Positions 37 to 968 of a stretch of 24,490 bases of DNA are shown piece after piece. Location of the stretch: the IMG/VR virus record IMGVR_UViG_3300022562_001029, positions 1 through 24,490 of that record. One strand, written 5' to 3'. The DNA comes from a virus. A program made the translations under genes and the position numbers. The notes beneath the pieces were generated by a model, which was not told the DNA's origin, ran no database searches, and saw nothing but the letters and a program-made list of their open reading frames with translations. Numbering within the stretch: the stretch's first letter is position 1; each line of letters begins with the position of its first letter.

Positions 37-107
37 CGGGATGTAGTGCATTGGGTAAGCATCCTACCCAAGGGTAGGGGATAGCGGTTCGATTCCGTTC
101 GCCCCGG
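37..107 (+). tRNA. tRNA-like element with a 4-nt anticodon loop
   Basis: Canonical tRNA parts are visible in order. Acceptor 37-43 pairs with 100-106 (one A-C mismatch, one G-U). T44/A45 occupy positions 8/9. The D stem is GTGC 46-49 with GCAT 59-62, around a loop containing GGG. The anticodon stem CTACC 64-68 pairs with GGTAG 73-77. A 5-nt variable region (78-82) precedes a T arm 83-87/95-99 with a perfect TTCGATT loop (88-94). The discriminator would be G107 and no CCA is encoded. The oddity is the anticodon loop, only C69-A70-A71-G72, three bases short of seven and without U33. Everything else has normal spacing. It may be a pseudo-tRNA, a decoy or a structural element; no amino acid can be assigned. 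Confidence 0.6.
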
Positions 108-120
108 CAAATTAAAAATT

Positions 121-237
121 AGACCTGCAAAGACTAATTGGTGTAAGATTGAATACGGCCCTGTGCGAATAGAAGCACCTGTCGGACATTTTCCGGACGC
201 CTGAACATCACTGAAAAATTTCAACCTTTGCAGGTTT
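121..237 (+). ncRNA. Structured RNA domain A, closed by a 10-12 bp helix
   Basis: Bases 123-132 (ACCTGCAAAG) are perfectly complementary to 226-235, and the flanking G122/T236 and A121/T237 can extend the helix to 12 bp. Two hairpins lie inside: 163-166 with 175-178 (GTGC/GCAC), and 181-186 with 192-198 (GTCGGA with TCC, a bulged G, then GAC). An isolated 10-bp perfect inverted repeat 93 nt apart with nested hairpins and no open reading frame is good evidence for a folded RNA. The segment 136-146 resembles a tRNA D loop (TTGGT), but no T loop is present. I do not recognise an Rfam family. Confidence 0.45.
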
Positions 238-240
238 TAA

Positions 241-252
241 CGTTCTTTGACA
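241..252 (+). promoter_or_regulatory. boxA-like antitermination site
   Basis: The sequence CGTTCTTTGACA resembles the boxA element (E. coli TGCTCTTTAACA) and, more closely, the GTTCTTTGACA found just upstream of 16S rRNA in Bacteroidetes. boxA RNA binds NusB-S10 and makes RNA polymerase resistant to Rho on untranslated transcripts. Its place inside a long noncoding, highly structured tract, just before a 12-bp closing helix, mirrors an rRNA leader. Alternative reading: TTGACA at 247-252 as a -35 box, with a poor -10 (TAATCT) at 271-276. Confidence 0.5.
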
Positions 253-258
253 TCTTAT

Positions 259-416
259 AAAAACAATATCTAATCTTTAGGCATCATGAGTCGCAATCAT
301 GCAATAATATCGATCATCAAAGGAACCCTCTGCCAAGATCGAGGTTGTTAACATTCTGCAATTACTCTAGAGCTATGATTGTAGTTTGGGGGAAACAACG
401 AGTGGATATTGTTTTT
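259..416 (+). ncRNA. Structured RNA domain B, 12-bp closing helix with three internal hairpins
   Basis: Bases 259-270 (AAAAACAATATC) are perfectly complementary to 405-416, 134 nt apart. Inside, three hairpins follow one another. Hairpin one is 285-289/297-301 (CATGA/TCATG, 7-nt loop). Hairpin two is 310-315/337-342 (TCGATC/GATCGA). Hairpin three is 344-349/394-399 (GTTGTT/AACAAC), which encloses a 9-bp helix 356-364/376-384 with two G-U pairs. This is a classic multibranch fold. It begins seven bases after the boxA-like site. No coding capacity and no family recognised. Confidence 0.5.
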
Positions 417-512: not shown

Positions 513-575
513 ACGGATTGTACCAGTGTTTATACCAACCTTAAGACGGGGGTTTGACTCCCCTTCGGGGCGCGA

Positions 576-593
576 TGGTCAGAGAGCTGATCA
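576..593 (+). other. Hairpin in the spacer of the permuted tRNA
   Basis: TGGTCA 576-581 pairs with TGATCA 588-593 (one G-U), with a 6-nt loop GAGAGC. It begins four bases after the discriminator G572 of the upstream tRNA half, so it may position the 3'-end processing cut. Seen directly; role inferred. Confidence 0.35.
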
Positions 594-635
594 TTACACC
601 AGTTTTTAATTAAGTTTTAGGATTTTCCAAACTCC

Positions 636-665
636 GGGCTGGTGGTGACCTTATTCCACCAGCCC
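636..665 (+). other. Perfect 10-bp GC-rich hairpin in the permuted tRNA spacer
   Basis: GGGCTGGTGG 636-645 is fully complementary to CCACCAGCCC 656-665, with a 10-nt loop. Only five bases (AACCT) separate it from the 5' end of the tRNA 5' half at 671, where an RNase P cut would be expected. No U-tract follows, so it is probably not a terminator but part of the folded spacer. Confidence 0.5.
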
Positions 666-743
666 AACCTGCCCCGGTAGTTTAGTGATTAGAACGTAGG
701 GTTTTAAATTGTTATCTTAAAATACACTGAATGTATCAATCCA

Positions 744-942: not shown

Positions 943-968
943 AAGCCCGGTGTTGGCCGGGCTTCTTT
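943..968 (+). terminator. Terminator-like hairpin closing the RNA cluster
   Basis: AAGCCCGG 943-950 pairs with CCGGGCTT 957-964 (8 bp, 6-nt loop), followed by the weak U-rich tail CTTTA. It lies between the last tRNA-like element and the first protein gene at 1000. It is the expected 3' end of the RNA transcript, although the short U-tract suggests partial read-through into the downstream genes. Confidence 0.55.

What the first reader, a model, noticed from the sequence alone, without database searches (positions are those of the whole stretch)
515..742. A circularly permuted tRNA embedded in a closed RNA domain
The 3' half of a tRNA (539-572) is upstream of the matching 5' half (671-708). 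All five helices pair, including acceptor 7/7 and anticodon stem 5/5 between the two halves, and the tertiary positions fit: U8-A14, G15-C48, G18-U55, U54-A58, and A19-U56 as a compensatory replacement of G19-C56. The leader before the 3' half and the trailer after the 5' half pair over about 21 bp, so the anticodon stem continues into a long helix, as in permuted pre-tRNAs of algae and archaea. I know of no such gene in a phage. If joined at the 7-nt loop, the anticodon is UUA (stop-codon reader).
Basis: partly seen in the sequence, partly recalled or inferred. Interest (0 to 1): 0.9.

Follow-up and report, generated by a model that had tools for sequence, protein, structure and literature searches.

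The report
Phage RNA with reordered tRNA fold
A virus of bacteria carries a structured RNA in which a complete transfer-RNA fold is encoded back to front; many related and unrelated phages carry the same kind of reordered fold, and the evidence points to a non-decoding tRNA look-alike rather than a split tRNA gene that is spliced together.

Summary
In detail: 539-572 and 671-701 make a full cloverleaf in circularly permuted order. ARAGORN calls a tRNA on the rejoined halves. My permuted-tRNA scan scores 38; the next in the window is 11, and the best in 249 Mb of random sequence is 32. The reading as a permuted pre-tRNA spliced into an ochre-reading tRNA is not supported. At least 45 other distinct permuted modules occur in other phage contigs. 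In 11 boxA-led ncRNA relatives, found through the same polymerase clade, the helices covary strongly. Most acceptor ends are capped by only 1-10 nt, and U33 is present in only 9 of 46. The two other tRNA-like elements beside it lack a 7-nt anticodon loop. The clade shows no RtcB or RNA_ligase, and UAA ends about half of the window's genes. The permuted fold is known from bacterial Y RNA (YrlA), and several of the other phages do encode Ro60 beside such modules. The window's clade shows no Ro60, so it is not filed as a Y RNA. Best reading: a tRNA-mimic module of a phage ncRNA, a new variant of a known kind.

The parts
37..107 (+). tRNA-like element TL1 in normal order; acceptor, D and T arms good, anticodon arm CUACC-CAAG-GGUAG with a 4-nt loop and no anticodon
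   Evidence: Rfam tRNA 38.7 bits; ARAGORN tRNA-???; loop length read from the sequence
120..236 (+). closed RNA domain of unknown role (ACCTGCAAAG/CTTTGCAGGT)
   Evidence: 10-bp perfect inverted repeat; fold
242..250 (+). boxA-like GTTCTTTGA, also at the head of the relatives' RNA and of a clade permuted tmRNA
   Evidence: same word in L098-L113 and L050; boxA role is inference
259..416 (+). closed RNA domain of unknown role
   Evidence: 20-nt arms, 85% complementary; fold
515..529 (+). 5' strand of the helix that closes the permuted tRNA-like domain
   Evidence: pairs with 724-742 in the MFE and centroid folds
539..572 (+). 3' half of the permuted tRNA-like module: anticodon stem 3' strand, variable loop, T arm, acceptor 3' strand, position 73
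573..670 (+). linker that caps the acceptor end; two hairpins (about 575-597 and 636-665)
   Evidence: folds; GGGCTGGTGG/CCACCAGCCC
671..701 (+). 5' half of the permuted tRNA-like module: acceptor 5' strand, D arm, anticodon stem 5' strand
   Evidence: sequence
724..742 (+). 3' strand of the closing helix
828..896 (+). tRNA-like element TL2 in normal order; anticodon arm best read as ACAGC-UACG-GAUGU (UACG tetraloop, one mismatch)
   Evidence: Rfam tRNA 34.9 bits; the free MFE fold of this segment differs
944..968 (+). terminator-like hairpin AAGCCCGG/CCGGGCTT followed by T, end of the noncoding region
   Evidence: sequence and fold

Best explanation
The element is a non-decoding tRNA mimic built into a larger phage noncoding RNA. 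Its ends leave through the anticodon stem into a closing helix, and its acceptor end is capped by a linker, so it folds as a tRNA elbow without any splicing. This is the architecture of the tRNA-like module of bacterial Y RNA (YrlA). Shown: the permuted cloverleaf, its covarying counterparts in related phages, and its place among tRNA-like elements without a 7-nt anticodon loop. Inferred: that the RNA is made and stable, and that the module works by offering a tRNA shape to a tRNA-binding protein, most likely as a decoy or docking module against host enzymes that act on tRNA. In phages that also encode Ro60 the same kind of module would work as part of a Y RNA; in the window's clade, which shows no Ro60, the partner is unknown.
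For: Fold and chance level. In 10 related modules 97.6% of pair cells are standard pairs and 16 of 21 pairs, including acceptor 7/7, have two-sided changes; sliding the strands drops pairing to 35-49%. The 15-48 Levitt pair, whose position 48 was not scored in the search, is G-C or A-U in 44 of 46 modules. Caps are mostly 1-10 nt and U33 is present in 9 of 46. One relative, L103, has the host ncRNA without any tRNA module, so the module is a peripheral swap-in part. The modules match YrlA RF02553 below its gathering score in 27 of 31 records. TROVE/Ro60 is encoded in 8 of 27 non-clade records with modules, adjacent on the same strand in several. TL1 and TL2 lack 7-nt anticodon loops (read from sequence). 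No RtcB or RNA_ligase in the clade records.
Against: No close homologue of this exact element was found, so covariation is shown for relatives, not for this copy. Its linker (98 nt) is far longer than most caps, so model R1 finds it only weakly and misplaced, and RF02553 does not find it. Its closing helix does not carry the flank motifs seen in either larger group. The first 7 nt after its anticodon stem do look like an anticodon loop. Expression and any binding partner are untested.
Confidence: 0.62

Rival explanations
1. It works as a two-piece (nicked) tRNA-like RNA: RNase P cuts before 671 and a 3' nuclease cuts after 572, the 98-nt linker is discarded, CCA is added, and the two pieces stay paired through the anticodon stem and closing helix, as in two-piece tmRNA.
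For: Five clade relatives (L032, L044, L050, L074, L075) carry genuine permuted tmRNAs; the one read in context, L050, sits directly after the clamp-loader gene. The linker here is long and structured like a tmRNA internal spacer. Position 73 is available.
Against: No tag frame and no tmRNA match in the window. The 4-bp D stem and the acceptor without G3-U70 are not tmRNA features. Most related modules have caps too short for such processing.
Confidence: 0.2
2. It is a true permuted pre-tRNA, circularised or spliced at the anticodon, giving a tRNA with anticodon UUA that reads UAA.
For: ARAGORN accepts the rejoined halves as tRNA-Stop(tta) with a well-formed loop. The leader and trailer can pair right up to the anticodon stem.
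Against: No bulge-helix-bulge. No RtcB or RNA_ligase in 22 records (host ligases are not excluded). UAA ends 22 of 42 of the window's ORFs. Relatives mostly lack U33 and many have very short caps.
Confidence: 0.08
3. It is a Y RNA in the strict sense, bound by a host-encoded or distant phage Ro60 protein.
For: Same permuted tRNA-like module as YrlA. Other phages with such modules encode Ro60 next to them.
Against: No TROVE match in 23 records, mostly of the window's clade, among them records of 65-75 kb. No GGUC-CGA/CUU-GACC-like motif in the closing helix. No RF02553 match in the window.
Confidence: 0.07
4. It is a decayed tRNA cluster, with no function left in the permuted order.
For: TL1 and TL2 have abnormal anticodon arms. 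No close homologue was found.
Against: All helices and the 15-48 pair are intact in this copy. Recurrence and strong covariation of such modules in relatives.
Confidence: 0.03

Closest known systems
YrlA, bacterial Y RNA (RF02553), tRNA-like module, PDB 6CU1
   Same: Circularly permuted tRNA fold: the ends leave through the anticodon stem and the acceptor stem is capped. PMC11472068 reports circularly permuted superposition of Y RNA on tRNA.
   Different: No Ro60 in the window's clade, no Ro60-type stem motif seen, 98-nt acceptor cap, several tRNA-like elements on one noncoding stretch, no match to RF02553 in the window.
Two-piece permuted tmRNA (RF04321), also in phages (PMC9004378)
   Same: 3' part of the tRNA-like domain precedes the 5' part, with a spacer at the acceptor end and pieces held by a long helix; present in clade relatives.
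   Different: No tag frame, no G3-U70, a full D stem, no covariance-model match.
Permuted tRNA genes of algae and an archaeon (PMC3978253)
   Same: Gene order of the halves and cloverleaf pairing.
   Different: No bulge-helix-bulge; relatives have caps too short for end maturation and mostly lack a proper anticodon loop.
GOLLD/ROOL ornate phage RNAs
   Same: Large structured phage RNAs linked to tRNAs; tRNAs sometimes lie in the GOLLD linker (PMC12286853).
   Different: No Rfam match; here the tRNA fold is permuted and part of the helix system.

Membership tests
Bacterial Y RNA / YrlA | circularly permuted tRNA-like module | tested here: met
   counterparts match RF02553 in other phages
Bacterial Y RNA / YrlA | Ro60 (TROVE) protein encoded with it | tested here: not met
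   no PF05731 match in the window or 22 other records, mostly of the clade; the window record is a fragment and the host is unknown
Bacterial Y RNA / YrlA | Ro60-binding stem motif in the closing helix | tested here: not met
   helix 515-529/724-742 read by eye against the vertebrate Y RNA motif as I know it
Bacterial Y RNA / YrlA | RF02553 match at gathering score | tested here: not met
   the long linker hampers the model
Permuted tRNA gene (algal/archaeal kind) | halves in 3'-5' order forming a full cloverleaf | tested here: met
Permuted tRNA gene (algal/archaeal kind) | bulge-helix-bulge at the junction | tested here: not met
   leader and trailer can pair with a one-sided 7-nt bulge (702-708); read from sequence
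Permuted tRNA gene (algal/archaeal kind) | joined mature tRNA in the cell | not testable with these tools
   needs RNA from infected cells
Two-piece tmRNA | tag reading frame and tmRNA covariance match | tested here: not met
Two-piece tmRNA | G3-U70 and reduced D arm | tested here: not met
   acceptor GCCCCGG/UCGGGGC and a 4-bp D stem
GOLLD/ROOL | Rfam match | tested here: not met

The most novel reading that the evidence does not exclude
Phages of many kinds carry a Ro60-independent class of noncoding RNAs that use a circularly permuted tRNA as an exchangeable module, often in arrays. One large set shares the layout 7-8-bp stem, CAGCAA, permuted tRNA, stem, TGATAA-like linker, and the records checked show no TROVE protein. 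The window's element is a divergent member of this wider class, and the modules serve as tRNA decoys in phage-host conflict.
Probability: 0.35. Interest if true: 0.8.

Novelty: new variant of a known kind. Interest (0 to 1): 0.62.

Why it matters
A permuted tRNA fold has been tied to two settings in bacteria, Y RNA and two-piece tmRNA. Here it recurs in dozens of phage contigs, with and without Ro60, and swaps in and out of one ncRNA family. That makes two questions testable: what tRNA mimicry is for in phages, and whether it protects against host enzymes that attack tRNA, as was suggested for YrlA (PMC7790460). It also warns that tRNA finders miss these modules.

Tried and rejected
DNA similarity in 50,697 phage records gave nothing for 1-1000 and only 23-base chance matches for 500-760. 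A degenerate pattern from the D arm of this element gave no hit in viral contigs. Group I/II intron, GOLLD/ROOL and other Rfam families: none in the window. Permuted tmRNA in the window: rejected, no tag frame or match, though clade relatives have it. Suppressor tRNA with recoded UAA: rejected, TAA ends 22 of 42 ORFs. A model of the relatives' module (R1) finds this element only weakly, with the 5' half misplaced, because of the long linker; that is no support. The search for RNA_lig_T4_1 is uninformative because no control rang. Homology of the window's noncoding region with the relatives' 330-400-nt RNA was not shown (E 8.6). A resemblance by eye between the window's closing helix (GGATTG...CAATCC) and the L047 unit (GGATTGC...GCAATCC) may be chance and is not counted. 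A scan of bacterial genomes for the polymerase clade gave four MAG or genome contigs and no clear host.

Full report
What is there. The window is a whole 24.5-kb virus record with phage replication genes (polymerase, clamp, clamp loader, recombinase, RuvC). Bases 1 to about 970 are noncoding and end in a terminator-like hairpin. They hold three tRNA-like elements and several closed RNA domains. ARAGORN draws a full cloverleaf from the rejoined halves and nothing from the genomic order.

Chance. A scanner for T arm, acceptor, D arm and anticodon stem in permuted order gives 38 for this element and 11 for the next in the window. The best of 249 Mb of Markov sequence is 32, and the best of 5.1 Mb of reversed real phage DNA is 25.5. 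The region folds with z -3.6.

Relatives. The polymerase alignment brought in 80 related contigs. The scanner found permuted modules in several of them. A boxA-plus-stem pattern then gave 16 loci, 12 of them distinct, of a conserved RNA of about 270-400 nt; 11 of the distinct ones carry one or two permuted tRNA modules, and one (L103) carries none. In ten of these modules 97.6% of pair cells are standard and 16 of 21 pairs show two-sided changes, with all seven acceptor pairs among them; slid controls fall to 35-49%. In the same clade L047 has an array of tRNA-like units, one of which carries a permuted tRNA on its anticodon-arm position. Five clade members carry genuine permuted tmRNAs.

Wider search. 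Two further patterns and the scanner gave 43 modules that do not overlap ordinary tRNAs, in many other phage contigs up to 436 kb, often in arrays. Over everything fetched there are 46 distinct modules at score 33 or more, the window's included. Those between 30 and 33 are at the level of the best chance hit. The pairs used for scoring are biased by selection. The 15-48 pair is a fairer test because position 48 was not scored: it is G-C or A-U in 44 of 46. Caps range from 1 to 157 nt and are mostly 10 nt or less. Position 33 is U in only 9 of 46.

Ro60. Eight of 27 records with modules outside the window's clade encode a TROVE protein. In several it lies next to YrlA-like RNA on the same strand, for example G059, G068, G061, G072 and G070. 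The modules match YrlA below its gathering score in 27 of 31 records. In the 23 records tested first, mostly of the window's clade and including records of 65-75 kb, there is no TROVE match. A second set of flanks shares a stem followed by CAGCAA, in records without TROVE. The window's flanks fit neither set.

Mechanism. Shown: a permuted tRNA fold that recurs, covaries in relatives and is swapped in and out of a larger RNA. Inferred: it is a tRNA mimic that needs no splicing. The reasons are the short caps and missing U33 in the relatives, the neighbours without a 7-nt anticodon loop, the absence of RtcB and RNA_ligase in the clade records, and the use of UAA as a stop in about half the genes. 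What it binds is not known. A decoy for tRNA-attacking enzymes is the idea raised for YrlA (PMC7790460) and is the most likely use here, without direct evidence.

Known kinds. The permuted fold is known from Y RNA (PMC11472068 and references there) and from two-piece tmRNA, including phage tmRNA (PMC9004378). [quoted passage not shown] The window's element fails three of four YrlA tests, so it works like the YrlA module but is not filed as one.

Noticed in passing
L047:14600-15130: Tandem array of six small tRNA-like units, each a 7-bp stem followed by NACAGCAA and joined by TGATAA; only one carries a permuted tRNA. Looks like an undescribed RNA family, seen again in L211 and L240.
   Followed up: partly
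L137, L175, L211, L221, L228, L240, L245, L252 (flanks of permuted modules): Shared layout stem-CAGCAA-permuted tRNA-stem in phage records without a TROVE protein.
   Followed up: partly
L032:2913-3266, L044:1530-1874, L050:4484-4898, L074:3111-3464, L075:2771-3124: Permuted tmRNA genes in relatives of the window's phage; in L050 the gene follows the clamp-loader gene directly, near where other relatives have the permuted-tRNA ncRNA.
   Followed up: partly
L098-L113, columns 29-75 of A4: The ncRNA core has a hairpin whose loop can pair with upstream bases (CAGAG/CUCUG against AAGGU/ACCUU), a likely covarying pseudoknot, and a second hairpin with a palindromic loop (CCGG or CUAG).
   Followed up: no
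L106, L110, L112, L113, first module: A second type of permuted module with a leucine-tRNA-like D arm and a complete anticodon hairpin in the 5' half, so the cut lies in the variable region.
   Followed up: no
window 1000-23922: Of 42 chosen ORFs 22 end in TAA, 20 in TGA and none in TAG.
   Followed up: no
L088: A 12.5-kb contig whose start encodes the last third of the window's clamp loader at 100% identity; the part held does not cover the RNA region.
   Followed up: no
L121 reverse strand 1510-1830: A clade relative with a permuted module, a terminator-like hairpin and, after a boxA-like site, a normal-order tRNA-like element with a very long anticodon/variable region, the closest layout to the window.
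   Followed up: partly
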